From Minwuia sp. (lineage in GTDB: Bacteria > Pseudomonadota > Alphaproteobacteria > Minwuiales > Minwuiaceae): DNA of 64,000 nt. Below, piece after piece: positions 11,121 to 55,162 of this stretch. Below the pieces are notes generated by a model. It saw nothing but the letters and a program-made list of their open reading frames with translations, did no database searches and was not told the DNA's origin. The stretch spans positions 124,001 to 188,000 of the forward strand of contig JARGPL010000027.1 of assembly GCA_029210175.1 (NCBI GenBank). The letters are read 5' to 3'. Each line of letters begins with the position of its first letter. Within the stretch, counting starts at the first letter, position 1. Both the position numbers and the translations under genes were made by a program.

Positions 11121-12458
11121 GTGCAGCCCCCCGCCCCCCGCGTCCGCTTCGCACCCAGCCCGACCGGCGAGCTGCATCTGGGAAACATCAAGGCAGCGGT
11201 GATCAACTGGCTGTTCGCCCGCGCGCATGGCGGCCAGTTTGTGCTGCGCATCGATGATACCGATACGGAACGTTCCACCGCCGCGTTCGAGGCCGGGATC
11301 CTTGGCGATCTGGAATGGCTCGGCCTGCACTGGGATGACTTCGCGCGGCAGTCGGAACGGAACGCACGCTATGACGCTGCGGTTCAGCACCTGCGTGACG
11401 CGGGCAGGCTCTACGCCTGTTACGAGACACCGGATGAACTGAACCGGAAGCGCGGGCTGCAACGCGCCGCTGGCCGCCCCCCGGTCTATGACAGGGCCGG
11501 GCTGAAACTGACCGATGCGGAACGGGCCGCGCTGGAGGCCGGGGGACGGCGGCCACACTGGCGGTTTCTGCTGAACCAGACGCGGGTGGTCTGGGATGAT
11601 CTGGTGCGCGGCACCCAGGATGTGGATGCCGCATCCCTGTCCGACCCCGTGCTGATCCGCGAGGACGGCCGCCCGCTGTACACGATCACATCCGTGGTTG
11701 ATGACGGCGAGATGGCCATCAGTCATGTCATCCGGGGTGAGGATCACGTCGCCAACTCGGCTGCACAGATTCAGCTGTTCGAGGCCCTGGGACACGCCGT
11801 GCCGACGTTCGGCCACTTCGCGCTGATCGTGGAAGCAGACGGCGCGCCCCTGTCGAAACGGGACGGCAGCCGCACGGTGCAGGCACTGCGCGAACAGGGG
11901 ATCGAGCCCATGGCGCTGGTCAGTCTGCTGTCGCGCCTTGGCACCGCACAGCCGGTGGAGGCCTTTGCAACCCACGACGCGGCGGTTGCCGGTTTCGATC
12001 TGGCCACGTTCGGACGTGCCGCCGCGCGTTTCGATGAACGCGAGCTGCAGAAACTCTCGGCCACGCTGGTGCATGGCCTGAGTGTGGAACAGGCTGCGGA
12101 GCGTCTCGGCGCACCGATTGATCCCGCGCTCTGGGAAGCGGTCAGGGGCAATCTGGAACAGTTGCGCGATGTCGCGATCTGGCAGGACATTGTCTCGAAG
12201 CCGGTCGAACCCGTCATCGAGGACGCCGCATTTACCCGTCGCGCAGCCGAACTGCTGCCTGAAGGGGAGCCGGATCCGGAAACCTGGGGCATCTGGACCA
12301 AGGCCGTGCGGGCCGAGAGCGGGCGCAAGGGCCGCGACCTGTTCCGGCCACTGCGCCTCGCCCTGACCGCCCAGGAACACGGACCCGAAATGAAGGCGCT
12401 GTTACCGCTGATCGGGCGAACACGCGCCCTGGGGCGACTGCGCGGTGAAACGGCCTGA
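11121..12458 (+). CDS. gltX: Glutamyl-tRNA synthetase
   Basis: Charges tRNA-Glu (or, in organisms with GatCAB, also tRNA-Gln). Class I signatures are present: RFAPSPTGELHLGN (HIGH region) at the start, IDDTDTERS, and LSKRDGS as the KMSKS loop. About 445 residues is short but usual for alphaproteobacterial GltX. I use GTG at 11121 because translation from the upstream ATG at 11064 would overlap nadE by more than 50 bp and add a non-conserved leader; an ATG start inside nadE is the alternative. The stop at 12458 lies just 59 bp before the first CRISPR repeat. Confidence 0.92.
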   Translation: MQPPAPRVRFAPSPTGELHLGNIKAAVINWLFARAHGGQFVLRIDDTDTERSTAAFEAGILGDLEWLGLHWDDFARQSERNARYDAAVQHLRDAGRLYACYETPDELNRKRGLQRAAGRPPVYDRAGLKLTDAERAALEAGGRRPHWRFLLNQTRVVWDDLVRGTQDVDAASLSDPVLIREDGRPLYTITSVVDDGEMAISHVIRGEDHVANSAAQIQLFEALGHAVPTFGHFALIVEADGAPLSKRDGSRTVQALREQGIEPMALVSLLSRLGTAQPVEAFATHDAAVAGFDLATFGRAAARFDERELQKLSATLVHGLSVEQAAERLGAPIDPALWEAVRGNLEQLRDVAIWQDIVSKPVEPVIEDAAFTRRAAELLPEGEPDPETWGIWTKAVRAESGRKGRDLFRPLRLALTAQEHGPEMKALLPLIGRTRALGRLRGETA

Positions 12459-12517
12459 AGGTGAGGTCCGGTGCAGCTCCCTCTTGCGACGCCCCACTCT
12501 GGGATGCGGACGCCCCA

Positions 12518-14665
12518 ACCGTGGTTTCCCTGCCGATTTCCCTCAGGTAGGCTGTAATGGCGGACGTTGACGACACTAGCGGCGCCGTGGTTTCCCTGCC
12601 GATTTCCCTCAGGTAGGCTAACTTGCCGCCATGGCGCAGCGCACGGAGCGCCGTGGTTTCCCTGCCGATTTCCCTCAGGTAGGCTCCTTCTCACCCTGAG
12701 TTACGCCCTCGAGAAGCCGTGGTTTCCCTGCCGATTTCCCTCAGGTAGGCTGCCGGTGGATCACACATTCTGGGACACGCAGCCGTGGTTTCCCTGCCGA
12801 TTTCCCTCAGGTAGGCTCTGTACCCAGTACCGCTTTCGGATGCCGGTGCCGTGGTTTCCCTGCCGATTTCCCTCAGGTAGGCTCAGCACTCCGTGGCGGT
12901 GCTGAAACTGGTCGCCGTGGTTTCCCTGCCGATTTCCCTCAGGTAGGCTGACACGTCGAACGCGTAGACACTTGGGGCCGCCGTGGTTTCCCTGCCGATT
13001 TCCCTCAGGTAGGCTGCCGTATCGGCCTGGTACCGCGCCCGATACGCCGTGGTTTCCCTGCCGATTTCCCTCAGGTAGGCTTTGGCCCCGCTGAACCGCA
13101 GGGCCGACTTGGCCGTGGTTTCCCTGCCGATTTCCCTCAGGTAGGCTTTCATGCCAGGGTCCTCATGCGCCTGCTCCGCCGTGGTTTCCCTGCCGATTTC
13201 CCTCAGGTAGGCTGCGCATTGTTGCGGATGCGCTGGTCGGCCAGCCGTGGTTTCCCTGCCGATTTCCCTCAGGTAGGCTCGGTCGGTTGTTTCGGTGTGG
13301 GCTTCTGTCGCCGTGGTTTCCCTGCCGATTTCCCTCAGGTAGGCTAAATCGATGACACTGGATTCCGCCGAATCCGCCGTGGTTTCCCTGCCGATTTCCC
13401 TCAGGTAGGCTGTTCGGTTTCGACAATGCGTGCGCCGCTGCGCCGTGGTTTCCCTGCCGATTTCCCTCAGGTAGGCTTCGCACCGTGTCCGGCATCGCGC
13501 GTGCGTTGCCGTGGTTTCCCTGCCGATTTCCCTCAGGTAGGCTTCGCCATGGCCCCCGGCGGGGGGCGCTTGCGCCGTGGTTTCCCTGCCGATTTCCCTC
13601 AGGTAGGCTCCGCCCTTCAAGGACAACATGCCTTCATGGGCCGTGGTTTCCCTGCCGATTTCCCTCAGGTAGGCTCGCGGCAGGGCGAAGGTCAGGGACC
13701 GCGAGGCCGTGGTTTCCCTGCCGATTTCCCTCAGGTAGGCTATAGCCACGATCGAGGCGATGAATGGCATGGCCGTGGTTTCCCTGCCGATTTCCCTCAG
13801 GTAGGCTGGGACTGCCTGGCGAATGACCCGGACCAGTGCCGTGGTTTCCCTGCCGATTTCCCTCAGGTAGGCTAGATGCAGCTCTGCCTTGATGGTGATT
13901 GTCGCCGTGGTTTCCCTGCCGATTTCCCTCAGGTAGGCTCAGGCCGTCGGAGGGTTTTCGGGGCCTTCGGCCGTGGTTTCCCTGCCGATTTCCCTCAGGT
14001 AGGCTCATCGGACGTGTTGCCCTGGCTCTCAATGCGCCGTGGTTTCCCTGCCGATTTCCCTCAGGTAGGCTGTTGGGTGGAAAGATGTGCACGTTGCTTG
14101 TGCCGTGGTTTCCCTGCCGATTTCCCTCAGGTAGGCTGCCCCAGAAGGAGCCGTTGTTCATGTTGGCGCCGTGGTTTCCCTGCCGATTTCCCTCAGGTAG
14201 GCTTGGATGACAATGTTGTCGTGCTCAACATGGGCCGTGGTTTCCCTGCCGATTTCCCTCAGGTAGGCTCCACCGCCACCCGCCTGCGCCGCATGGCCGG
14301 CCGTGGTTTCCCTGCCGATTTCCCTCAGGTAGGCTAAGGAAGCGCTTGGTGCGGTGGTGTCCAAGGCCGTGGTTTCCCTGCCGATTTCCCTCAGGTAGGC
14401 TCGCCCGGCTCTATATTGGCCGTCCTGTAAAGCCGTGGTTTCCCTGCCGATTTCCCTCAGGTAGGCTAAAAGACCAGCCCGCGCAATGAGGCACTTGGCC
14501 GTGGTTTCCCTGCCGATTTCCCTCAGGTAGGCTGTGACGGTAAGCGCACAGGCTGACGGTGTCGCCGTGGTTTCCCTGCCGATTTCCCTCAGGTAGGCTC
14601 GCGTAGGCCGCGTAGGGTCCGCTGCATTAGCCGTGGTTTCCCTGCCGATTTCCCTCAGGTAGGCT
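12518..14665 (+). CRISPR. Type II-C CRISPR array, 33 repeats and 32 spacers
   Basis: I counted 33 copies of a 36-bp repeat starting at 12518, 12584, 12650 and so on to 14630, always 66 bp apart, giving 32 spacers of exactly 30 bp. On the plus strand the repeat begins GCCGTGGTTTCCC, continues TGCCGATTTCCCT and ends CAGGTAGGCT. All copies read identical by eye except the first (12518-12553), whose first base is A instead of G. The strand is set as plus because the tracrRNA anti-repeat pairs with this form. Spacers are all different and GC-rich; no origin can be named without a search. Flanks are tight: 59 bp from gltX and 46 bp to the cas2 stop. Because 66 is divisible by 3, open frames run through the array, but they are not genes. 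Confidence 0.99.
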
Positions 14666-14711
14666 ACGAGCACGGCAAGGCTTTGCAATTGCTGGGAGAA
14701 ACGGGAACTGG
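14666..14711. other. Short cas2-array junction, possible leader
   Basis: The 46 bp between the last repeat and the cas2 stop codon. It has no obvious -10/-35 and is AT-rich only around TTTGCAATTGC. Either this or the 59 bp at 12459-12517 must carry any leader sequence needed for spacer integration; both are unusually short. Confidence 0.4.
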
Positions 14712-15017
14712 TCATAGCAGAACAAGTTGACCGGTTCCTGTTTGTTCCTGCGCACTGGGCATTCCGACAAGCAGTTTCATGCGGGCATATTGCCTTTCCG
14801 TGACCTGCAGCGCACGGACACTGCCACGTGGTGGCAGATTCTTCTCCACGCGCGCGAGGTGTTTGTCGGCGGCATCCTGACCGCGACAGACACGGGTGTA
14901 GACCGAGAACTGCATCATGTCATAGCCATCATTGCGAAGGAAATTGCGGAACCTGGTTGCATTCCGGCGTTCCGGTCTGGTGCCGACCGGCAGGTCGAAA
15001 AAGACGAACAGATACAT
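14712..15017 (-). CDS. cas2: CRISPR-associated endonuclease Cas2
   Basis: Structural partner of Cas1 in spacer acquisition. About 101 residues, starting MYLFVFFDLPVGTRPERR: the beta1 strand with the conserved Asp (FFDLPV) of Cas2, then RNFLRNDGYDMMQFSVYTRVCRG and a C-terminal ALQVTERQYARMKLLVG strand-helix. I choose the ATG at 15017 because GAGGA lies 9-10 bases upstream and the protein then begins right at beta1; an upstream ATG at 15041 would add 8 residues. It is the last gene of cas9-cas1-cas2, 30 bp after the cas1 stop. Confidence 0.95.
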   Translation of the reverse strand: MYLFVFFDLPVGTRPERRNATRFRNFLRNDGYDMMQFSVYTRVCRGQDAADKHLARVEKNLPPRGSVRALQVTERQYARMKLLVGMPSAQEQTGTGQLVLL

Positions 15018-15047
15018 GAACCGAATTTCCTCTGCGCGCATGATTGT

Positions 15048-15941
15048 TTACACCACCGGCAATTCCAGCGCGTCCGCGCCGCCGTCTGTCAGCGCCCGCA
15101 CCAGCGAGGCAACAACCCGGTCGATGGCGGGCTGAAGGGCAAGCTGTTCCCCGTTGATGATGACGGTTTCTGCCAGAATGGCAGCCAGTTCACGGCGGTC
15201 GGCAAGCGACAGTTCTGCACCGGATGAGGGCTGACCCAGGCCGCTGATGGCGTGCACCCTGAAATCGACAACCGGGCGAAAGACCTCCAGCAGGTCATCG
15301 GCCAGGTTGAATGGATTGGCCGCACCGGCATGATGGATTCCGAATGCGGGCAACAACCCCGATGCAACCAGGGTGCGTGCGATACAGGCCCGCAGGATGG
15401 CATAGCCGTAATTCAGCATCGCATTGCGCACGTCCGCGGCGTCATGGCGACGGAACGCAACGAACAATCGGCCCCAGTAGAACCGTGCGCCCCGCGCCTC
15501 CACATTCTTCGGATCACCCGAACCGACATGCCGCGCCATTTCGCGCAATGCCTGCCCGCCCTCTGCCTGACAGGAATCAAGCGTCAGAGCCTGATTGGTC
15601 AGCTTGCAACGGATGATCCGCTGCCAGATTCTTTTCCGCAGCGGGCCGGATGCAGCCAGTTGCTGTCGCGCGATGCCCGCTTGCTGCCAATGCTGATGGA
15701 ATGGCATCAGCACGCCGCACGGCATGTGCCTGGCGTCGGAGATGACCAGCGGCACACCATTCTGCATGCAGGCCGCCATGACAGCCGCCGTAGCCGTCAC
15801 TTCCGGCGTGTCCAGGATGATCCAGCCAAGATCTTCCAGCGGAAACGACAGCGCCTGCTGTTCATGCCGCGCCACTTGCAATGAGCCGTGGCGCAGCGAC
15901 AACCGTGCAGGCTGGCTCAGGTGCAGACCGCGCCATGCCAT
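15048..15941 (-). CDS. cas1: CRISPR-associated endonuclease Cas1 (type II)
   Basis: Integrase of the spacer-acquisition complex, 297 residues. The Cas1 fold is clear: N-terminal beta domain with LSLRHGSLQV and LGWIILDTPEVTATAAVMAACMQNGVPLVISD, then the helical catalytic domain with VEARGARFYWGRLF (metal-binding Glu, about E148), NAMLNYGYAILRACIARTLVASGL, GIHHAGAANPFNLADDLLEVFRPVVD (His about 203-204 and a Glu about 219). The start at 15941 overlaps the cas9 3' end by 25 bp, so the two are translationally coupled. Confidence 0.97.
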   Translation of the reverse strand: MAWRGLHLSQPARLSLRHGSLQVARHEQQALSFPLEDLGWIILDTPEVTATAAVMAACMQNGVPLVISDARHMPCGVLMPFHQHWQQAGIARQQLAASGPLRKRIWQRIIRCKLTNQALTLDSCQAEGGQALREMARHVGSGDPKNVEARGARFYWGRLFVAFRRHDAADVRNAMLNYGYAILRACIARTLVASGLLPAFGIHHAGAANPFNLADDLLEVFRPVVDFRVHAISGLGQPSSGAELSLADRRELAAILAETVIINGEQLALQPAIDRVVASLVRALTDGGADALELPVV

Positions 15942-18900
15942 GTCCGCTGCTCCTGTTTCACCGGTGAGAGATTACCCAGTCGGTCTACCGAGAACTTCTC
16001 GATCAGTTGTGACGTAGGGGTGCCGACACGAGAAATTGTTCTCGAGTAGTGACTGGACAGGCCGATCTTGGCGTCGAACCGGTCCACACCCCTGTAATAT
16101 CCCTCAACCTCAGTGTCGTCGGATTTGACAATCCGGACATATGAATTTGGATAGAGACTCAGGCAGAAGTGCGCATCGGGACCGACAATCGGCCAATCCG
16201 ACTCCTGCACATTGCGGGCTATGGCTCGGTTGGGCGGACTCGGCCAGGCTGTCCGGTTCATGACCTGATGGCGATAGATCGGCACCAGGAAATAGCGTTC
16301 CCGACCCTTCTTGTCCGCCATTCTGAACACGTCAACCCGGACCATGTCGCCATTGTCGACCTGGCCTCCATTGACTTCGAATCCACTCTTGCTGCCCGCA
16401 TCAAGCCGAACCTTTCGAATTGGATCGCCTTTTGGTGAAAGCGGTGGCTTATCTTTTGGCTTCCCGGCGTCGATCCAGCTCTGCAGTGCATCAAAAAGCG
16501 GCCTGTTGCGGCCTTCGCCGTCGCGTATGCGTTTCAGGTCGGGCGCTTTCAGGTCATCCACCGACTTGCGTTCCATCACCATGCGTTCTCCGTCGGCTGT
16601 CTGCGCGATGGCGCGGATCGTGGCCGGGTGTCCCGCCCCGCGACCACGCCGCCGCTCCGACCGTGAAACGAAAATATTCCCATAGGCCTCAATGGCGTCC
16701 TTGCGGAAACCTGGCCACGGGGCAGGCACAGGGGGTGTCCAGCGGCTCCTGTCCTGTTCTTCCAGCCTCTGGTACTGACGGGTCAGTCCTTGCAGCAACC
16801 AGTCACTGCGCGCAGCGGCACAGATCAGCGCGTCCAGCCCGTGGTGGCGGTCATCGCGCCGGTCCTTGACATCGCCGAGGCCCCAGGCGTGGCGCAGAAT
16901 GGCGGTAATGGCCCCGGGGCGGGCAAACAGGCGCCGTCTGGTGTCTCCCATTCCGGTATAGCCGATGTCAGACGGCTCCGGTTCGCCGCCGTCGGCATAG
17001 AGAAGGCGCAGTGCCGCCAGCAGCGCGCGGGAGGCATAGCGCGTGTCATTCAGGTTCCGCGCGACGAAACCGTCCACCCGTTCCCCGAAGTTCTGCATCA
17101 GCAACAGGTTCCGCTTGTATCGCTTCATCTGTTTCAGTGCACCGACGCGAACCCTGAAAGCCTCCCACCGGGCGGCGTCATGGCCGAACCACTCAAACGG
17201 TGTCTGGTTGCCCTTTTCGCGGTTGGCGCTGGTCAGGCAGACCACCTGGTTCTGGAAACTGTTGTCCTGGCTGCGGCTGCGGGGCAGCGCATGGTCGATC
17301 TCCACGCCCTGCTTCAGCAACATGGATGGGGAAATATGTTCGTCGGAATAGAGGCATCGCTGGTTCTGTTCCTTCCACAGTTCATAGCGCCGCAATTGTT
17401 CATCCGTGGGTCGATTGCCCAACCCAAGTTCCTGTTGCAGCGTTTCGCGGGCTTTCTCCTTTGCCCTTGTCCGCTTTTCCAGACCCTTGGTCATCTTCTC
17501 CCGCTCTTCCGCCGATTTGCCGACGTCACGGGCCAGTTCGACGATGATCCGCCCCGGTCGGGCACCAAAGACATGCACCAGTGTTACCGTCTGCTTGATC
17601 GCTTCCGACAGGCTCCGCTGCACCACGGGGTTGGCGATGTCCGTGATCTCGATCCGACGCTCTGCTGTGTGGTCATAGCCGGCGGCGGCACAGGCTTGCG
17701 AATAGACCATGCCCTGCAGCAGGTTGGGCAGGATGTTCCGCGCGGCCTTGGCCGAAACATGACCGGTTCGCGTGAATCTGGCGAATTTGCCTGCTTCCAC
17801 CCCTGTCATCAGGGCTTCAATCAGGTGGGGTTCCAGACCGTCAATTGATTCCAGGCCCGCACGAATATCCTCCAGGTCCTCACGGAACGAGATGACGGCT
17901 GCGGCACGATCAAGCACCTCGGGGCGGGCCTTGAGCGCCTCAATGGATGCGGTTGGGATATGTTGAAACAAAGTTCGCGACCCCTCCATGGCGCCATCTC
18001 CGGCGGCGACGTCTTTCTTTGCCTTTTCGGGATCAATTCCGGTGAAAACGGTCCCGTCGCGAAAACCAAGCTTTTTCGCCAGCGCGTTCCACGTGAACTT
18101 CTTGGTGGTCATGCCCCAATCAGCCAGCGCGTGGCCAAGTTCCTCCGCTGTCAGGCGTCGCAGACCGGCCTCGGTCCTGACCTGAACCGTGTTCAATTTC
18201 GCCACGAAGCGGAATTTTTCGAACGAGGGGGCCATTCGGGGGCTGCGTTTCTCCTCCGGCTCGAACGGGCAATGGCCGACAAGGTCCTCACTGCCTTTCA
18301 GGCCGAGCTGGAAGAAGGCGATTTCGTGAAAGGCTGCTTCAAGATCTTCCGACGCGAGACGGTTGCCGAGGCGCCTTTGCGCCTGAAACAGGGTGCGCAC
18401 CTCATCCTCAAGTTCGTTGCGCAGCGCTGTTCTGCTGTATTCGCCTGACCGGTTGCGTTTGCGCTTCGAAAATTCCTCATGTTCCATCATCAGGCGGGCG
18501 ATGGAACCATAGGGCTGCATGATTTCCTGCCGGGCCGCGATGGCGGCCAGCATCTTGCTGTTTTCATCGGGCGCGTTCTCGCCCGCATCCGACTTGCTGC
18601 TGGACTTGAAGCCGCGATGCTTGGCGATATGCAGCAAGGCAGCCGCGAAGGCATCATCAGCGAGCCGCGCCTTCAGTCCGTCCGCACGGGCGATCCAGGG
18701 ATCCGGTGCATCTCTTCGGTGGTGAAACGCATCCGGGTCAGGGGTGGCGATCAGCCCATACTCGACGAAAAGCAACCGCACCTGCTTCATGCGACCGGCC
18801 CGGCGTCGAATGGTCCGCCGGTGCAGCCGCGCTTCCCGCCGGACGGCGTTGTTCAGCGTTCGGTCCTTGGGGTTTTCCGGCGCATCGAAACAGCGGCTGC

Positions 18901-19051
18901 CGCAATGCAGGATTGCCGGTTCCGTGCCATGCCGGACCATCGCAGACCCGATGGAGGCAATGCCGACGTCCAGACCCAGAACGAGCTCTTCGTCTATCGG
19001 ATAACGGCCACAAGCCGCCTCCAACCTGTCGAGAACGGTCCTGCCCGCCAT
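15917..19051 (-). CDS. cas9: CRISPR-associated endonuclease Cas9, compact type II-C
   Basis: RNA-guided DNA endonuclease, about 1044 residues. I place the start at the ATG at 19051 (MAGRTVLDRLEAACG) because GGAGG lies 5 bases before it; the TTG 12 bases upstream is part of that ribosome-binding region. Domains by residue: RuvC-I LGLDVGIASIGS with D28; Arg-rich bridge helix about 70-92 (RREARLHRRTIRRRAGR); REC region about 100-460; RuvC-II IIVELARD with E505; HNH about 555-625, with VEIDHALPRSRSQDNS (H587) and the Asn in LTSANREKGN (about N610); RuvC-III DRHHGLDAL with H736/H737 and D740; then a short PAM-interacting C-terminus. All catalytic residues are intact. No csn2 or cas4 is present, hence subtype II-C. 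The PAM cannot be read from the sequence. Confidence 0.98.
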   Translation of the reverse strand: MAGRTVLDRLEAACGRYPIDEELVLGLDVGIASIGSAMVRHGTEPAILHCGSRCFDAPENPKDRTLNNAVRREARLHRRTIRRRAGRMKQVRLLFVEYGLIATPDPDAFHHRRDAPDPWIARADGLKARLADDAFAAALLHIAKHRGFKSSSKSDAGENAPDENSKMLAAIAARQEIMQPYGSIARLMMEHEEFSKRKRNRSGEYSRTALRNELEDEVRTLFQAQRRLGNRLASEDLEAAFHEIAFFQLGLKGSEDLVGHCPFEPEEKRSPRMAPSFEKFRFVAKLNTVQVRTEAGLRRLTAEELGHALADWGMTTKKFTWNALAKKLGFRDGTVFTGIDPEKAKKDVAAGDGAMEGSRTLFQHIPTASIEALKARPEVLDRAAAVISFREDLEDIRAGLESIDGLEPHLIEALMTGVEAGKFARFTRTGHVSAKAARNILPNLLQGMVYSQACAAAGYDHTAERRIEITDIANPVVQRSLSEAIKQTVTLVHVFGARPGRIIVELARDVGKSAEEREKMTKGLEKRTRAKEKARETLQQELGLGNRPTDEQLRRYELWKEQNQRCLYSDEHISPSMLLKQGVEIDHALPRSRSQDNSFQNQVVCLTSANREKGNQTPFEWFGHDAARWEAFRVRVGALKQMKRYKRNLLLMQNFGERVDGFVARNLNDTRYASRALLAALRLLYADGGEPEPSDIGYTGMGDTRRRLFARPGAITAILRHAWGLGDVKDRRDDRHHGLDALICAAARSDWLLQGLTRQYQRLEEQDRSRWTPPVPAPWPGFRKDAIEAYGNIFVSRSERRRGRGAGHPATIRAIAQTADGERMVMERKSVDDLKAPDLKRIRDGEGRNRPLFDALQSWIDAGKPKDKPPLSPKGDPIRKVRLDAGSKSGFEVNGGQVDNGDMVRVDVFRMADKKGRERYFLVPIYRHQVMNRTAWPSPPNRAIARNVQESDWPIVGPDAHFCLSLYPNSYVRIVKSDDTEVEGYYRGVDRFDAKIGLSSHYSRTISRVGTPTSQLIEKFSVDRLGNLSPVKQEQRTWHGAVCT

Positions 19052-19084
19052 TGCAACCTCCAATCAACAACAAAAAACATATTC

Positions 19085-19118
19085 AATTGTTGACGGCGGC
19101 GGCGAATAAGGCAATCCT
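19085..19118 (+). promoter_or_regulatory. Candidate divergent promoter for tracrRNA (plus) and cas9 (minus)
   Basis: On the plus strand TTGACG (19090-19095) is followed after 17 bp by AATCCT (19113-19118), predicting a start near 19125, exactly where the anti-repeat begins. On the minus strand TTGCCT and AACAAT, also 17 bp apart, could drive cas9. The -35 of the plus promoter is good, the -10 weak. Inference from sequence only. Confidence 0.45.
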
Positions 19119-19120
19119 GC

Positions 19121-19205
19121 GGTCAGGGAAATCGGTTGGGAAACCACGGTAATTTGGATTTTTCCAAACGAAGAGTTACCCCGTCGACTTCGGTCGGCGG
19201 GGGAT
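19121..19205 (+). ncRNA. tracrRNA for the type II-C Cas9 (core)
   Basis: Positions 19125-19149 form an anti-repeat. Reading from 19150 back, it pairs with the repeat GCCGTGGTTTCCC over 13 positions (first pair G-U), then one mismatch, one G-U, and about ten further pairs with CCGATTTCCCT. The anti-repeat is followed by AA and two perfect hairpins: TTTGGA-TTTT-TCCAAA (19153-19168), placed like the nexus, and a 10-bp stem 19179-19188/19193-19202 closed by a TTCG tetraloop with one G-U pair. This is the standard order anti-repeat, nexus, 3' stem. The hairpins lie downstream only if transcription is plus, which sets the crRNA strand. The 3' end is uncertain: no T-run follows the second stem, and termination may occur at the hairpin at 19246. 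Confidence 0.88.
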
Positions 19206-19245
19206 CTCCTTATTCACCAACCGTTTGCAGCACATTTGAGATGAT

Positions 19246-19276
19246 GACAGGGCAGATTCTGCTCTGTCCCTTTCTC
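19246..19276 (+). terminator. Possible tracrRNA terminator
   Basis: A 10-bp stem GACAGGGCAG / CTGCTCTGTC (one G-U pair) with an ATT loop, followed by CCTTTCTC. It is the first hairpin with a T-rich tail downstream of the tracrRNA core. The T-tract is weak, so this is a modest call. Confidence 0.4.
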
Positions 19277-19488
19277 GACCAGACCGTCCTTGGGTTCAGA
19301 CCACAAGCTGGACTCGGCTCAATTGCTGGAGGCTGCGATCACTGCATCGCTGCTCTGGCAGCGAAAGCGGTCGAGACACATCCGTGCAGCATCAGACCCG
19401 TTGTCCTGTTCGCTTGTTGCGACACATTGGTACGCCATCACTGTCCGGAAACAGGCAACCATACCGCTCCATCAGGTTACGGAACGGT
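19277..19488. other. Intergenic region between tracrRNA and DEAD-box gene
   Basis: About 210 bp with no recognisable gene, repeat or RNA. Open frames here are short, lack ribosome-binding sites and resemble nothing known to me. No further CRISPR repeat copies were seen. Confidence 0.5.
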
Positions 19489-21243
19489 TCAGGCAGCGTC
19501 GCTGGATTCGGAGTCTGAATTGACGCGCAGCGGGCGGAGCAGGAATGCCGGGACATGATCGCCCAGGCCCACCGGCGTATCGCCGTCATCGCGACGGTTG
19601 CGGTTGCCGGAACGGCTGCGGGGCGCGCGGGCCGGGCGGCCTGACTCGGGGCCATCCCCTGACGGCACGCGGGCTGCCTGTCGATCCGAAGACCTGACCG
19701 GGGCCGCCTCTGCTGCAGGGGGGGTATCTGCCCTGGCCGCCTTGTCGACAGTTTCCGCCTTGTCGCCCGTTTCCGACTTGTCGACAGTTTCCGCCTTGTC
19801 GACAGTTTCCGCCTTGTCGCCCGTTTCCGCCTTGTCGGCCTTGGCCGAACGACGGGGTGCGCGTTTGCGCGGTGTCTTTGGCGCAGCTTCCTGGGTGGTA
19901 TCGGCGTCTGTCCCGACAGCCTCGGCGGCGGTCGGTGCGGCCTCTTTCCCTGCTTCCGCTTCTGCGTCCGCATCCTTCGGCTTCGCAGACCGACGGGCGC
20001 GACGGGGCTTCTTTTCCTTCGGCGCATCTTCTGCAGACGGCACGTCACCTTCATCGGCGGCAGCGTCCTTCGGAACAGCCGCCGGTTTCGGTGCCGACTT
20101 CGATGCCGGCGCGGTCTTCTTGCCGAATCCCTCGATCTCGATGTGATTGATGTTGCCACCGATCAGCTTCTGGATCGCATCCAGCGACTTGGTTTCCTTG
20201 GCAGTGGCGAGCATGAAGGTACGGCCCTTCATGCCAGCGCGCCCTGTACGACCGATGCGATGGATATAGTCTTCGGCGTGGAACGGCACATCGAAGTTGA
20301 ACACGTGGCTCAGCCCCTGAATGTCGATGCCACGGGCCGCCACATCGGAGCAGACCATGATTTTGGCCTGATCGGACTTGAACTTTTCCAGCGTTGCCAT
20401 GCGGTCCAGCTGGTCCATGTCACCATGCAGGGCCACGGCATCGAAGCCATGCTTCAGCATCGACTTGTGCAGCATCTTCACGTCGGACTTCCGATTGCAG
20501 AAGATCAGCGCGTTGCGGATGTTCTCCTGCGCGATCAACGCCCGCAGGGCATCGCGCTTGTCACGCTCGTCAAGTATCGTGATGTACTGTTCAACCGTTG
20601 CCGCAGTGGATGTGGGCGGTGCCACTTCCACTTCACGCGGATCGACCAGGAACTTGTCAGCCAGCTTGCGAATCGACGGCGGCATGGTGGCCGAGAAGAA
20701 AAGCGTCTGACGGCGCGGCGGCAGGCAGGACACGATCCGTTCGACATCAGGCATAAAGCCCATGTCCATCATGCGATCCGCCTCGTCGATGACGAAGAAC
20801 TGGATCTGGCTCAGCATCATGCGGCCGCGATCGAACAGATCAAGCAGCCGACCCGGGGTGGCGATGATGATGTCGCAGGTGCCGTCGAGTTCGGCCTCCT
20901 GCTCCTTCATGCCAAGGCCACCGATCAGCAGCGCCCGGGAAAGTTTCTGGTACTTGGTATACTTGTCGAAGCTGTCCGCCACCTGGGCAGCCAGTTCGCG
21001 CGTCGGTTCCAGCACGAGTGCGCGCGGCATGCGCGGCTTCGACCGGCCCTGGGCCATGACGTCGATCATCGGCAGCAGGAACGCAGCGGTCTTGCCGGTG
21101 CCCGTTTGCGCCGTGCCGAGCAGGTCCTTGCCCATCAGCACATGCGGAATGGACTTCTGCTGAATCGGAGTGGCAGTTTCATACCCCTCCTCGGAAATTG
21201 CCTTACAGACCTCGTCACTCAGACCCAGGTCCTGAAATGTCAT
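19489..21243 (-). CDS. DEAD-box ATP-dependent RNA helicase (RhlE-like)
   Basis: RNA helicase of about 584 residues from the ATG at 21243 (MTFQDLGLSDEVCKAI). The frame is open up to 22125 but that part is antisense to the hydrolase gene and not helicase-like. Motifs: Q motif TPIQQKSIP, Walker A AQTGTGKT (45-52), PTRELA (80-85), DEAD at 153-156, SATMP, and HRIGRTGRAGMKG (motif VI). The core ends near residue 380. The remaining 200 residues are a disordered Lys/Ala/Glu-rich tail carrying a hexapeptide repeat (DKAETV/G) and ending RSRSGNRNRRDDGD, a likely RNA-binding or assembly tail. The RhlE group acts in rRNA maturation or RNA turnover; the exact role is not assignable. Confidence 0.92.
   Translation of the reverse strand: MTFQDLGLSDEVCKAISEEGYETATPIQQKSIPHVLMGKDLLGTAQTGTGKTAAFLLPMIDVMAQGRSKPRMPRALVLEPTRELAAQVADSFDKYTKYQKLSRALLIGGLGMKEQEAELDGTCDIIIATPGRLLDLFDRGRMMLSQIQFFVIDEADRMMDMGFMPDVERIVSCLPPRRQTLFFSATMPPSIRKLADKFLVDPREVEVAPPTSTAATVEQYITILDERDKRDALRALIAQENIRNALIFCNRKSDVKMLHKSMLKHGFDAVALHGDMDQLDRMATLEKFKSDQAKIMVCSDVAARGIDIQGLSHVFNFDVPFHAEDYIHRIGRTGRAGMKGRTFMLATAKETKSLDAIQKLIGGNINHIEIEGFGKKTAPASKSAPKPAAVPKDAAADEGDVPSAEDAPKEKKPRRARRSAKPKDADAEAEAGKEAAPTAAEAVGTDADTTQEAAPKTPRKRAPRRSAKADKAETGDKAETVDKAETVDKSETGDKAETVDKAARADTPPAAEAAPVRSSDRQAARVPSGDGPESGRPARAPRSRSGNRNRRDDGDTPVGLGDHVPAFLLRPLRVNSDSESSDAA
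19741..19838 (-). repeat. 18-bp coding tandem repeat in helicase tail
   Basis: Five near-identical 18-bp units, CTTGTCGACAGTTTCCGC and variants with CGCCCG, start at 19741, 19759, 19777, 19795 and 19813, with a partial sixth. On the coding strand they give D-K-A-E-T-V/G repeats. Length variation by slippage would keep the frame. Confidence 0.85.
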
Positions 21244-21489
21244 TGCGCTAATGTGCGTGCTCCCGTTGGGATTTTGCATCTGATGGTGATACGTCGGGTT
21301 CCGCCTGCGTTTCCGTACTTCATCGCTCTCGGATCCGGGGCCTGAACAGTGTCCAATTCTTTGACGACAGTACCATGACACGTCAGATGCTTGTCGTCTG
21401 ACTTTGGGGGAAGTACTGAAGGTGAGGTGCCCTGTCAATCGCGAACACTGTGTTCGGGGTGTGGCGTGTCCGCACGGCTGGAGTATTTC

Positions 21490-22188
21490 ATGACCCGACA
21501 AGACCTGCTTCTCATCCCCGGCCTGCTCTGTACCCGACAGCTTTGGGAACCCCAGATCGAGGCACTGGCGGACAGAGCCAGGATCGCGGTCGCAGATCAC
21601 ACGCGCGATGACACCATTGCGGCCATCGCGCGCCGCATCCTGGATACCGCTCCGGCAACCTTCGCGCTGGCGGGCCTGTCCATGGGCGGCTACATCGCCT
21701 TCGAGATCTGGCGACAGGCACCTGAACGGGTCGAACGCATTGCCCTGATGGACACCCGCGCCAGCAAGGACACGGACGCGGAAACCATCCGGCGCAAGGA
21801 TCTGCTGGCCCTGGTGGATCAGGGGCGTTTCAACGGCATTCATGACCGGTTGATCCCGCTGTTCGTGCATGCCGACCGGCTGGACGACGACGCCCTGCTC
21901 GGCAGCATCCGCCAGATGGCGGAGGACACCGGCAAGGATGGCTTCGTGCGCCAGACCCGGGCGTTGATGGCGCGCCAGTCTGCGCATGACGTCTGTCAAA
22001 GCATCGATGTTCCGGCCCTGGCGCTTTGCGGGCGGCAGGACGCCCTGACCCCCCTTGAGATGCATGAGGAAATGGCTGACCTGATCCCCGGTGCCCGGCT
22101 TGCAGTGATCGAGGATTGCGGTCACCTGTCGACCCTGGAGAAGCCGGAAGCGGTCACTGCCGAAATGCGCACCTGGATGGATGCCTAG
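21490..22188 (+). CDS. Alpha/beta-hydrolase fold esterase or lactonase-like protein
   Basis: A 232-residue soluble hydrolase. The start MTRQDLLLIPGLLCTRQLWEPQ is at 21490; the in-frame upstream ATG at 21391 adds a Cys-rich non-conserved leader. Visible: oxyanion LLLIPGLLCTRQLW, nucleophile elbow GLSMGGYIAFEIW (Ser about 89), the acid in LCGRQDALTPLEMHEEM, and the catalytic His in VIEDCGHLSTLEKPEAV. This is the full canonical triad of the 3-oxoadipate enol-lactonase/RsbQ-like group; the substrate is unknown. It diverges from the DEAD-box gene with about 250 bp between start codons. Confidence 0.86.
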   Translation: MTRQDLLLIPGLLCTRQLWEPQIEALADRARIAVADHTRDDTIAAIARRILDTAPATFALAGLSMGGYIAFEIWRQAPERVERIALMDTRASKDTDAETIRRKDLLALVDQGRFNGIHDRLIPLFVHADRLDDDALLGSIRQMAEDTGKDGFVRQTRALMARQSAHDVCQSIDVPALALCGRQDALTPLEMHEEMADLIPGARLAVIEDCGHLSTLEKPEAVTAEMRTWMDA

Positions 22189-22435
22189 ATCGCCCCACTG
22201 CTGGATTGCATCACCAGCCCGCTCCCGTCATTTGATGGACAGATCCAGAACAGCCGGATGCCGAAACCGGGGCCGGATCCTGTCCGTTTGACCTGAAACG
22301 GGCTTTCTGGCCAGAAACCTGAGGTTTTTCGAGATTCCGTTGGCCATTGCCGCTTGATCGGCGCTAGTAAACGAGGGAACAGTTAAGCGTCGCTGAAAGC
22401 GCGACGATTCGGACCTGCCCGGAGCAGTAAACGGC

Positions 22436-23299
22436 GTGCGTCGTTCAAACAAACCACTGGCCACCCGCATGGCAAGCCCGCTCGGCCTGCTGTTCAACCG
22501 GTTCGCGTTCGCGTTCCTGCTGGCGCTCGGCCTGACCCTGCTGGTTGCCGGTCGTTCCGGGATCGGCCCGGTCGAGCAGGTGCGCACGGGTCTGCTGGAT
22601 ATCCTCGCCCCGGTCCTCAACGTGATTTCGCGCCCCGTGTCCGCCGTCAATGACCTGGCAACGGAGATCGAACAGCTGTCGCGGGTCTATGACGAGAATG
22701 CCCGGCTGCGTGAAGAGAACGCGCGCCTGCTGCACTGGCAGAACGCGGCGCGGTCACTGGAACGCGACAATGCGCAGTACCGCCGGCTGCTGAATGTCCG
22801 CGCCCGGTCCGACGTCACCTACATCACCGCGCGCGTCGTCGGGGAATCAGGTGGCCCGTTCGTGAAGACCCTGCTGCTGGCTGCGGGGCAGCGGGACGGG
22901 GTGGAAGCCAATCAGGCCGTGGTCAGTGAACTCGGACTGGTAGGCCGGATCACCGAGGCGGGGCGCAACGCCGCGCGCATCCTGCTGATCACCGACCTGA
23001 ACAGCCGCATTCCGGTGATGCTGGAGAGTGATCGGCGGCGTGCCATCCTGTCGGGCGACAACAGCGGTCGTCCCCTGCTTGCCTTCCTGGAGGCGGAGGC
23101 CGTTGTCCGCCCGGGCGACCGTGTGGTCACCAGCGGCCACGGGGGCCTGTTGCCGCCGGGTCTGGTGGTTGGCGTCGTGTCTTCCGTCGCCGACGGTCAG
23201 GTCAGGTTGCGTCCGTTTGTCGACCTTGGTCGGCTGGAACGGGTGAATGTCCTGCGCTATCGCCGCCCGGAACTGGGAAGCGAGCGGGACGGACCATGA
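22436..23299 (+). CDS. mreC: Rod shape-determining protein MreC
   Basis: Periplasmic scaffold of the elongasome, linking MreB/RodZ, MreD and PBP2. The 287-residue protein has one N-terminal membrane helix (FAFAFLLALGLTLLVAGR, about 22-40), a coiled-coil (EIEQLSRVYDENARLREENARLL, about 82-104), and the two beta-barrel domains with GLVGRITEAGRNAARILLITDLNSRIPV and RPGDRVVTSGHGGLLPPGLVVGVV. The start is GTG at 22436 with GGAG about 11 bases upstream. It overlaps mreD by 4 bp. The usual upstream neighbour mreB is absent; an unrelated hydrolase is there instead. Confidence 0.94.
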   Translation: MRRSNKPLATRMASPLGLLFNRFAFAFLLALGLTLLVAGRSGIGPVEQVRTGLLDILAPVLNVISRPVSAVNDLATEIEQLSRVYDENARLREENARLLHWQNAARSLERDNAQYRRLLNVRARSDVTYITARVVGESGGPFVKTLLLAAGQRDGVEANQAVVSELGLVGRITEAGRNAARILLITDLNSRIPVMLESDRRRAILSGDNSGRPLLAFLEAEAVVRPGDRVVTSGHGGLLPPGLVVGVVSSVADGQVRLRPFVDLGRLERVNVLRYRRPELGSERDGP

Positions 23300-54118: not shown

Positions 54119-55162
54119 ATGGGCGATCTGACCCGCCGTCATTTTGAGCGGCAGGCGGAAGCTTGCGAGCGAATGAAATCCCCTTTCACAGCCAAACTGC
54201 TGCGGCTCGGCGCCGACCGGCTGACACCGGAAACAACCTTTGCCGCACGGGTGCTGGGCTGGTCGGATGAGCGGATGCGCGACGACGCACTTGCCTTGCG
54301 CTTTGCCGGTGCCCTGCATGCCTGTGTACTGTCGGACAGGGCACCGGAGCTGGCCGCCTGTTACCCGCCGAATGCCGGGCCGGATGATGAAGCTCTCTGG
54401 GCCGCAGTCTCACATACGATGGTGCGAGACGACGAATTCCTCAGCGCATTCCTGGACCATCCGCCCCAGACCAACGAGACCGGGCGCGCCGCCGTTCTGC
54501 TGCTCGGCTTTCAGCGCGCGGCGCTGGATACCGGCAACCCGCTGGCCATGCTGGAACTGGGTGCCAGTGCCGGGCTGAACCAGAACTGGGACCGCTTTGC
54601 TTATGATTTCGCAGGCACCACCTGGGGGGATGTCGAATCAGGCGTCCGTCTCGCCCCGGAATGGCGTGGCCGCGCGCCGGACAACCTGGCCCCGCTGGAG
54701 GTCGTCAGACGTCGCGGCTGCGATCTCAATCCGTTGCAGGTGGCCGATCCGGCACAGCAACTGCGGCTGCGCAGCTACATCTGGCCGGACCAGCAGGATC
54801 GCCTGGAACGCATGGACGCGGCCATCGCCATCGCCCTGGCGCAGAACACCCGTCTGGCGCGCGCCAATGCCGCCGACTGGGCCGAAGCCTGTCTCGTCGG
54901 CCTGCCGAAAGGCGTAACGACGGTCATCTATCATTCGATCTTCTGGCAGTACATGCCGGTCGGGATACAGGAATCGCTGCGCTCCACCATCGAAGTCGCA
55001 GGTGCCATGGCCACCGAAGACGCCCCGCTGGCATGGGTCAGGATGGAACCGAGCGAGGACAATCCCGAACATGCCGACCTCTTCTACACCCTCTGGCCGG
55101 AGCCGGAACGGCAGGTTCTCGCGCACTGCGACTATCACGGTCGCTGGATCGAGCCAGTGTGA
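54119..55162 (+). CDS. DUF2332 domain protein
   Basis: 347 residues from MGDLTRRHFERQAEACERM at 54119; upstream in-frame ATG at 54023 adds a Cys/Arg-rich leader. DUF2332 marks: RFAGALHACVLSDRAPELAACYPP, ETGRAAVLLLGFQRA, LAMLELGASAGLNQNWDRFAYDF, IWPDQQDRLERMDAAIAIA, and VIYHSIFWQYMP. The LELGASAGLN stretch suggests a Rossmann-like methyltransferase-type fold. Function unknown. Confidence 0.88.
   Translation: MGDLTRRHFERQAEACERMKSPFTAKLLRLGADRLTPETTFAARVLGWSDERMRDDALALRFAGALHACVLSDRAPELAACYPPNAGPDDEALWAAVSHTMVRDDEFLSAFLDHPPQTNETGRAAVLLLGFQRAALDTGNPLAMLELGASAGLNQNWDRFAYDFAGTTWGDVESGVRLAPEWRGRAPDNLAPLEVVRRRGCDLNPLQVADPAQQLRLRSYIWPDQQDRLERMDAAIAIALAQNTRLARANAADWAEACLVGLPKGVTTVIYHSIFWQYMPVGIQESLRSTIEVAGAMATEDAPLAWVRMEPSEDNPEHADLFYTLWPEPERQVLAHCDYHGRWIEPV

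What the first reader, a model, noticed from the sequence alone, without database searches (positions are those of the whole stretch)
19121..19276. Unannotated tracrRNA fixes guide strand of a compact II-C Cas9
The anti-repeat (about 19125-19149) pairs at about 24 of 26 positions with the plus-strand repeat, then come a nexus-like hairpin and a TTCG-capped 10-bp stem. A TTGACG box is placed to start transcription at the anti-repeat. This shows crRNAs are read on plus, opposite to cas9-cas1-cas2. The pair is nearly bulge-free, so a single-guide design would be simple to model.
Basis: partly seen in the sequence, partly recalled or inferred. Interest (0 to 1): 0.8.

Follow-up and report, generated by a model that had tools for sequence, protein, structure and literature searches.

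The report
Ordinary Cas9 partner RNA, strand confirmed
This stretch very probably encodes the partner RNA (tracrRNA) of a bacterial Cas9 immune system and shows which strand its guides are read from; the layout is standard, but two of the guides match a virus that sits in the same bacterium's genome, so something may be holding this Cas9 in check.

Summary
At 19125-19150 a plus-strand anti-repeat pairs with the 36-nt CRISPR repeat at 25 of 26 positions (23 Watson-Crick, 2 G-U, one U-U mismatch), followed by a nexus-like hairpin (19153-19168) and a TTCG-capped 10-bp stem inside a longer bulged stem (19173-19208). Relatives settle the strand: in 42 of 48 distinct stretches (window included) TTGAC lies 33-48 nt upstream of the anti-repeat (control 1.7%), and folding is stronger on the tracr strand in 47 of 48. 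The predicted start is base 19125. crRNAs are therefore read on plus, against cas9-cas1-cas2, the published rule for type II-C. New member of a known kind. No RNA was measured. More interesting, outside the window: a 42-kb prophage in tRNA-Ser on contig C15 of the same genome carries a 30/30 protospacer for spacer 15 and a 29/30 one for spacer 27, both with C at +5 like the other protospacers found. Cas9 looks intact, so interference is probably blocked or off. Two small-ORF/HTH gene pairs at the prophage end are unproven anti-CRISPR candidates.

The parts
12518..14665 (+). CRISPR array, 33 repeats of 36 nt and 32 spacers of 30 nt; crRNA sense is plus
   Evidence: 32 of 33 repeats identical; the first (12518) has one change at position 1
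14712..15041 (-). cas2, 109 aa
   Evidence: NCBIfam TIGR01573, 78.8 bits; Pfam PF09827
15048..15941 (-). cas1, 297 aa, type II (NMENI) form
   Evidence: NCBIfam TIGR03639, 274 bits
15917..19063 (-). cas9, 1048 aa from TTG 19063, or 1044 aa from ATG 19051 behind a GGAGG box (start choice by eye)
   Evidence: NCBIfam TIGR01865, 607 bits; D32, E509, H591, N614, H741 and D744 invariant in the alignment with five relatives (their catalytic roles are recalled)
19090..19095 (+). -35 box TTGACG of the tracrRNA promoter
   Evidence: TTGAC 33-48 nt upstream of the anti-repeat in 42 of 48 distinct stretches, window included; control 162 of 9600
19113..19118 (+). -10 box AATCCT, 17 nt after the -35
   Evidence: At the same offsets from TTGAC, T6 in 34 of 43 and A2 in 24 of 43 stretches, window included
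19125..19150 (+). anti-repeat; 19125 is the predicted transcription start
   Evidence: Pairing and energies; same place in relatives
19153..19168 (+). nexus-like hairpin, 6 bp, loop of 4
   Evidence: hairpins at this place in many relatives (folds, not counted)
19173..19208 (+). bulged stem-loop holding the TTCG-capped 10-bp stem 19179-19202; terminator-like
   Evidence: counterpart of GAAGGATTACCCC..GGGGGATTCC in relatives (sequences)
19246..19268 (+). second hairpin, 10 bp, followed by CCTTTCTC; possible terminator of a longer form
   Evidence: not compared among relatives

Best explanation
Bases 19125 to about 19212 (or to about 19275 if the second hairpin is the terminator) encode the tracrRNA of the adjacent type II-C CRISPR-Cas9 locus. 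It is transcribed on plus from a sigma-70-type promoter (TTGACG, 17 nt, AATCCT), divergently from cas9. Its first 26 nt pair with the first 26 nt of the repeat in plus-strand crRNA precursors; RNase III and trimming (recalled from known type II systems) would leave a crRNA with part of the spacer plus part of the repeat. The hairpins behind the anti-repeat would be the Cas9-binding part. Shown here: sequence, pairing, predicted fold, conserved promoter box, conserved position. Inferred: expression, processing, Cas9 binding, cleavage.
For: Pairing -55.8 kcal/mol against -45.6 for the best of 4106 control stretches. Tail fold z -4.25. Of 61 sources with an array (91 examined, window included), 56 have an anti-repeat scoring at least 42; 51 of these, window included, are of the same repeat family and carry it upstream of cas9 on the other strand. 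TTGAC in 42 of 48 distinct stretches against 1.7% in control; fold z median -5.1 on the tracr strand and -0.8 on the other, tracr strand stronger in 47 of 48 (window included). Promoter offsets put +1 on 19125. Repeat positions 1-10 mismatch the anti-repeat in 1 of 510 cells (rows were anchored on CACGG/CACGA, which favours positions 2-6). Protospacer 3' flanks share C at +5 in 5 of 5 spacers that match at 27/30 or better, with no invariant base among 12 on the 5' side.
Against: No transcript data. In the window itself the raw energies of 95 nt downstream of the anti-repeat are equal on the two strands (-31.1 plus, -31.5 minus); only z-scores (-4.6 against -1.6) and the relatives tell them apart. 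The U-run behind the TTCG stem is weak (CCTTATTC), and the scan found neither a terminator nor an E. coli-type promoter. RNAalifold on the MAFFT alignment of 46 stretches gave only 6 pairs and no useful consensus, so covariation was not measured. An invariant base among the first eight flank positions of five random sites has a chance of about 0.06. In the own family only the own genome has this cas9 (1 of 9 genomes).
Confidence: 0.95

Rival explanations
1. The tracrRNA is read on minus, running from the anti-repeat towards cas9, and crRNAs come from the minus strand of the array.
For: Pairing is formally symmetric. The 95 nt downstream on minus fold as well as those on plus in raw energy (-31.5 against -31.1); a nearby 67-nt minus stretch (19040-19106) has z -2.05, 7 of 200 shuffles as good.
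Against: That RNA would run into the cas9 ribosome site within about 60 nt. Relatives show little structure there (median z -0.8; weaker in 47 of 48), and TTGAC points the other way in 42 of 48. Protospacers have no shared base on the side where a minus reading would put the PAM.
Confidence: 0.02
2. A true tracrRNA locus, but the system is switched off in this strain (cas9 or RNAs not expressed, or PAM unsuitable), which is why the self-matching prophage is tolerated.
For: Spacer 15 matches the resident prophage 30/30 and spacer 27 29/30 with the mismatch at the PAM-distal position 3.
Against: Cas9 is full length with the expected catalytic residues, promoter and tracr fold look intact, 32 of 33 repeats are identical, and both flanks fit the N3YC motif, which was however inferred partly from these same sites.
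Confidence: 0.4
3. The prophage carries an anti-CRISPR that blocks this Cas9; candidate genes are the small ORFs C15:13340-13714 (124 aa) and C15:14067-14318 (83 aa), each directly upstream of a helix-turn-helix gene, as in acr-aca operons.
For: Two intact protospacers with fitting flanks; a perfect 65-nt att duplicate, so a bounded prophage. The 134-aa HTH protein meets Pfam Aca2_YdiL below threshold (E 0.22) and has relatives at the end of Bradyrhizobium phage ppBeUSDA76-1 (34%) and in genome G005 (54%), each with another small ORF upstream, different by eye.
Against: No dedicated anti-CRISPR library was on hand. In Pfam, NCBIfam and PHROGs the 83-aa protein matched nothing and the 124-aa protein only phrog_21393, function unknown (E 6e-7). 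HTH genes next to small ORFs are common in phages. G005 has no cas9 of this kind.
Confidence: 0.35
4. The anti-repeat is a chance match or a relic, not a gene.
For: None beyond lack of transcript data.
Against: Energy, fold and conservation controls.
Confidence: 0.01

Closest known systems
Type II-C CRISPR-Cas9 of Neisseria meningitidis, Pasteurella multocida and Campylobacter jejuni (PMC3936727, passages seen)
   Same: cas9-cas1-cas2 as the minimal set; array read opposite to the cas operon
   Different: Repeat GCCGTGG..GGTAGGCT and a tracr tail with a bulged GAAGGA-UUA-CCCC stem (window variant GAAGAG); no Rfam family matched 12000-23000 at E up to 1; best PDB match of the Cas9 425 bits (9ar4_A)
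Bordetella pseudohinzii II-C locus (PMC4624362, passages seen)
   Same: cas9-cas1-cas2, array downstream, 36-nt repeats with mostly 30-nt spacers, putative divergent tracrRNA upstream of cas9 with predicted promoter and terminator
   Different: Another bacterial class; sequences not compared here
II-C relatives found here, e.g. Hwanghaeella sp. MAG (L043, Cas9 55%), Tistrella mobilis (L071), Rhodopseudomonas pseudopalustris (L079)
   Same: Repeat family, place of the anti-repeat and TTGAC box
   Different: Cas9 35-55% identical among the 46 that were kept; nexus length varies; L043, L045, L046, L076 and L094 have an extra small hairpin before the terminal stem (folds)

Membership tests
tracrRNA | Anti-repeat complementary to the CRISPR repeat, near cas9 | tested here: met
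   25 of 26 positions paired, -55.8 kcal/mol; 61 nt between it and the cas9 ORF start at 19063
tracrRNA | Structured tail (nexus and terminal hairpin) 3' of the anti-repeat on the same strand | tested here: met
   z -4.25; z stronger than on the other strand in 47 of 48 distinct stretches, window included
tracrRNA | Own promoter upstream | tested here: met
   By sequence conservation only: TTGAC in 42 of 48, -10 positions; not found by the consensus scan
tracrRNA | Terminator at the 3' end | tested here: inconclusive
   None by the scan; stem 19173-19208 with a weak U-run, hairpin 19246-19268 then CCTTTCTC
tracrRNA | Expressed, co-processed with crRNA, bound by Cas9 | not testable with these tools
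   Needs RNA-seq and biochemistry
Type II-C CRISPR-Cas | cas9, cas1, cas2 and no csn2 or cas4 in the operon | tested here: met
   cas9, cas1 and cas2 fill the space between tracrRNA and array. csn2 and cas4 were not searched for elsewhere; the ORF left of the array looks like glutamyl-tRNA synthetase by eye, the one right of the tracrRNA is a DEAD-box helicase
Type II-C CRISPR-Cas | Array transcribed opposite to the cas operon | tested here: met
   By tracrRNA strand, no RNA data; weak support from the PAM side
Type II-C CRISPR-Cas | New spacers enter at the 3' (cas2) side, so the oldest repeat is the transcriptional first one | tested here: inconclusive
   First repeat degenerate in 15 of 29 arrays with both ends in view, last repeat in 0 of 29 (window included with one change); the extension rule allowed 12 mismatches, so some end repeats may be spurious (e.g. 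L066, 11 mismatches)
Anti-CRISPR locus (acr-aca) | Protein inhibits a Cas effector | not testable with these tools
   Candidates only
Anti-CRISPR locus (acr-aca) | HTH regulator of a known Aca family beside the small gene | tested here: not met
   Aca2_YdiL E 0.22, 12.1 bits against a cut-off of 23.8

The most novel reading that the evidence does not exclude
The strain is a lysogen of a phage that its own intact II-C Cas9 should cut at two sites, so the 42-kb prophage on contig C15 carries an undescribed anti-CRISPR against this Cas9 clade, most likely in the small-ORF/HTH pairs next to attL; spacer 15 targets one of those HTH genes itself.
Probability: 0.3. Interest if true: 0.6.

Novelty: new member of a known kind. 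Interest (0 to 1): 0.3.

Why it matters
It gives the guide strand, likely tracrRNA start, promoter and a tentative PAM (N3YC) for a compact Cas9 clade found mostly in Alphaproteobacteria records, enough to set up a dual-RNA cleavage test. The tracrRNA itself would not surprise a specialist. The coexistence of an intact-looking Cas9 with a matched prophage gives a concrete place to look for a Cas9 inhibitor.

Tried and rejected
Minus-strand tracrRNA: rejected on relatives' folds and promoter conservation, although raw energies in the window alone do not separate the strands. The complementary pieces GAATAAGG (near 19105)/CCTTATTC and CGGTTGG/CCAACCG suggested an alternative fold (note); the first lies upstream of the predicted start, and by eye the relatives do not keep the flanking pieces, so I dropped it without a count. 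Rfam: no match up to E 1 over 12000-23000. Scans at the array: no promoter, one terminator-like site (14821-14837) against 4.2 expected. RNAalifold on A3 (46 of 48 distinct stretches; L101 and L104 left out) was uninformative. An EM search for the -10 beat shuffles (4.40 against at most 3.74) but mixed several spacings; I rely on the column counts at fixed offset.

Protospacers elsewhere: no match in 50,697 phage records at E up to 0.1; in plasmids one record, Tistrella, whose matches lie beside its cas9, that is its array; exact 28-mers of spacers 15 and 27 absent from IMG/VR. In 385 genomes of the class 9 matched the array query at E up to 5e-4; apart from the own genome and G005 I take these to be arrays or weak matches, since a scan of 151 fetched loci (1.64 Mb; L001, L002, L009 and L043-L122 left out) at 24 of 30 or better added no new site. 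Matches of 21-23 of 30 were not counted. The array of L043 searched in its own genome gave itself, its anti-repeat and one 23/30 site. Homologs of the 134-aa HTH gene in IMG/VR: 13 pattern matches, none a relative; the 83-aa protein has no match in the phage records, the 124-aa one only E 0.9.

In one search a first TTGAC count used too narrow a range (29 of 51); one search replaced it with 23-50 nt on 48 distinct stretches (window included). In one search, 10 of 61 sources were dropped before counts: 5 for anti-repeat score under 42 (L083, L107, L116, L117, L121) and 5 for another repeat family (L020, L110, L111, L115, L120). Shuffles were mononucleotide, 60 per sequence. No structure prediction and no covariance model were made.

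Full report
What is there. The window carries a complete type II-C CRISPR-Cas9 locus. From left to right: a 33-repeat array (12518-14665; 36-nt repeats, 30-nt spacers, 32 of 33 repeats identical), then cas2, cas1 and cas9 on minus, then the stretch of the finding on plus. Cas9 is 1048 aa from the listed TTG, or 1044 aa from an ATG at 19051 behind GGAGG. Residues that I recall as catalytic are invariant in an alignment with five relatives.

The observation. The anti-repeat is 19125-19150. Against repeat positions 1-26 it makes 23 Watson-Crick pairs, 2 G-U pairs and one U-U mismatch at position 14. The duplex energy is -55.8 kcal/mol; the best of 4106 control stretches of the window is -45.6 and the best of 1000 shuffled repeats is -43.7. 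Behind it come a 6-bp hairpin (19153-19168) and a stem-loop 19173-19208 whose inner 10 bp are capped by TTCG. The 67-nt tail folds at z -4.25, with 0 of 200 dinucleotide shuffles as stable. Cofolding with the repeat keeps the duplex and both hairpins (-77.1 kcal/mol). Against this, 95 nt downstream of the anti-repeat on minus reach the same raw energy as on plus (-31.5 and -31.1), so the window alone does not fix the strand by energy.

Relatives. A search with an alignment of five Cas9 proteins gave 115 relatives in a collection of 84,980 species genomes, of which the best 80 were kept; the nearest is a Hwanghaeella MAG at 55%. Of 91 sources (window, 10 loci, 80), 61 show an array. In 56 of the 61 an anti-repeat scores at least 42, and 51, window included, are of the same repeat family, with the anti-repeat upstream of cas9 on the opposite strand. 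In 42 of 48 distinct stretches (window included) TTGAC lies 33-48 nt upstream of the anti-repeat, in 35 of them at 33-35; random stretches of the same loci have it in 162 of 9600. Aligned on TTGAC, offset 28 is T in 34 of 43 and offset 24 is A in 24 of 43, the places of the last T and the second A of a -10 box 17 nt on; with that T at -7, +1 is offset 35, base 19125 in the window. The tail has a lower z than the opposite direction in 47 of 48 (medians -5.1 and -0.8; for the window -4.6 and -1.6). Many relatives show GAAGGA-UUA-CCCC..GGGG-GA-UUCC; the window and L043 have GAG..CUC in place of GGA..UCC, a two-pair exchange that keeps pairing (read by eye, not counted).

Strand. This makes the tracrRNA a plus-strand gene and the crRNAs plus-strand, opposite to the cas operon. 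That is what II-C systems do (PMC3936727, passages seen), and a like layout was drawn for Bordetella pseudohinzii (PMC4624362, passages seen). A catalogue of Cas9 orthologs reports that place and orientation of these parts are in general conserved within clades (PMC7606464, passages seen). Array ends lean the same way: the transcriptional first repeat is degenerate in 15 of 29 arrays with both ends in view, the cas2-side repeat in 0 of 29, as expected if spacers enter downstream of the array (PMC12080349, passages seen); the rule for end repeats was loose. None of 29 has TTGAC in the 70 nt upstream of the array. All 51 repeats have TAnnnT or TAnnnC at their end and 37 of 51 have TGnTAnnnT, which would suit promoters inside the repeats as I recall for Neisseria; the window's own repeat lacks the TG. 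This is inference.

Protospacers and PAM. The own genome's contig C15 (87 kb) holds sites for spacer 15 (30/30), 27 (29/30), 22 (28/30) and 23 (27/30), and a weak one for spacer 6 (24/30). Genome G005 of the same genus has a site for spacer 18 (28/30), and two IMG/VR contigs related to the prophage have one for spacer 22 (26/30). Read on plus, each of these 3' flanks has C at +5 and C or T at +4; among the five best spacers no base is shared on the 5' side. In five random prophage sites some invariant base among eight positions turns up with probability 0.06, so this is supporting evidence only.

The prophage. C15 holds a prophage from tRNA-Ser(gct) at 12988-13078 to a perfect 65-nt duplicate of that tRNA's 3' part at 55157, about 42 kb, with integrase and repressor, terminase, capsid, neck, tape measure, tail fibre and endolysin genes and a head protease. 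Spacers 15 and 27 should still cut it if N3YC is the PAM. Tolerance then needs a reason: a silent system or an inhibitor. Next to attL, two small ORFs each precede an HTH gene (my own codon-usage gene calls). The 134-aa HTH protein has a sub-threshold Aca2_YdiL match (E 0.22); its relatives in G005 (54%) and in Bradyrhizobium phage ppBeUSDA76-1 (34%) have other small ORFs upstream (by eye). Of the two small proteins, one matches only a PHROG of unknown function (E 6e-7) and the other nothing. Self-matching spacers have led to anti-CRISPRs before (PMC6990116, passages seen). This remains a lead.

Novelty. A search for papers holding tracrRNA, Tistrella mobilis and Cas9 gave none. Searches on II-C, tracrRNA and Alphaproteobacteria (15 of 24 listed) and on PAMs of Cas9 orthologs (7 listed) showed no title or abstract start that names this repeat family; GCCGTGG does not occur in the main text of PMC10281378. 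Supplements could not be read, so I do not claim it is unpublished. Rfam has no match. I rate it a new member of a known kind, interest 0.3.

Noticed in passing
G000 contig C15 13015-55221 (L124-L126), outside the window: A 42-kb tailed-phage-like prophage in tRNA-Ser(gct) with perfect 65-nt att duplicates carries 30/30 and 29/30 protospacers for spacers 15 and 27 of the window's own array, plus two with 2-3 mismatches.
   Followed up: partly
G000 contig C15 13340-14719 (L124:1340-2719): Two small-ORF/HTH gene pairs next to attL look like acr-aca operons; the spacer 15 protospacer (13822-13851) lies inside the 68-aa HTH gene. No known Aca family reaches threshold.
   Followed up: partly
window 12518-14665 and related arrays: All 51 repeats (window included) have TAnnnT or TAnnnC at the end, 37 of 51 an extended -10-like TGnTAnnnT, and none of 29 arrays has TTGAC in the 70 nt upstream: crRNAs may start from promoters inside the repeats.
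   Followed up: partly
window 19246-19268: A 10-bp hairpin followed by CCTTTCTC behind the tracrRNA, possibly its real terminator or one belonging to the DEAD-box helicase gene on minus.
   Followed up: no
window 19719-19855: Tandem 18-nt units in the C-terminal coding part of the DEAD-box helicase gene, giving repeated DKAET-like residues.
   Followed up: no
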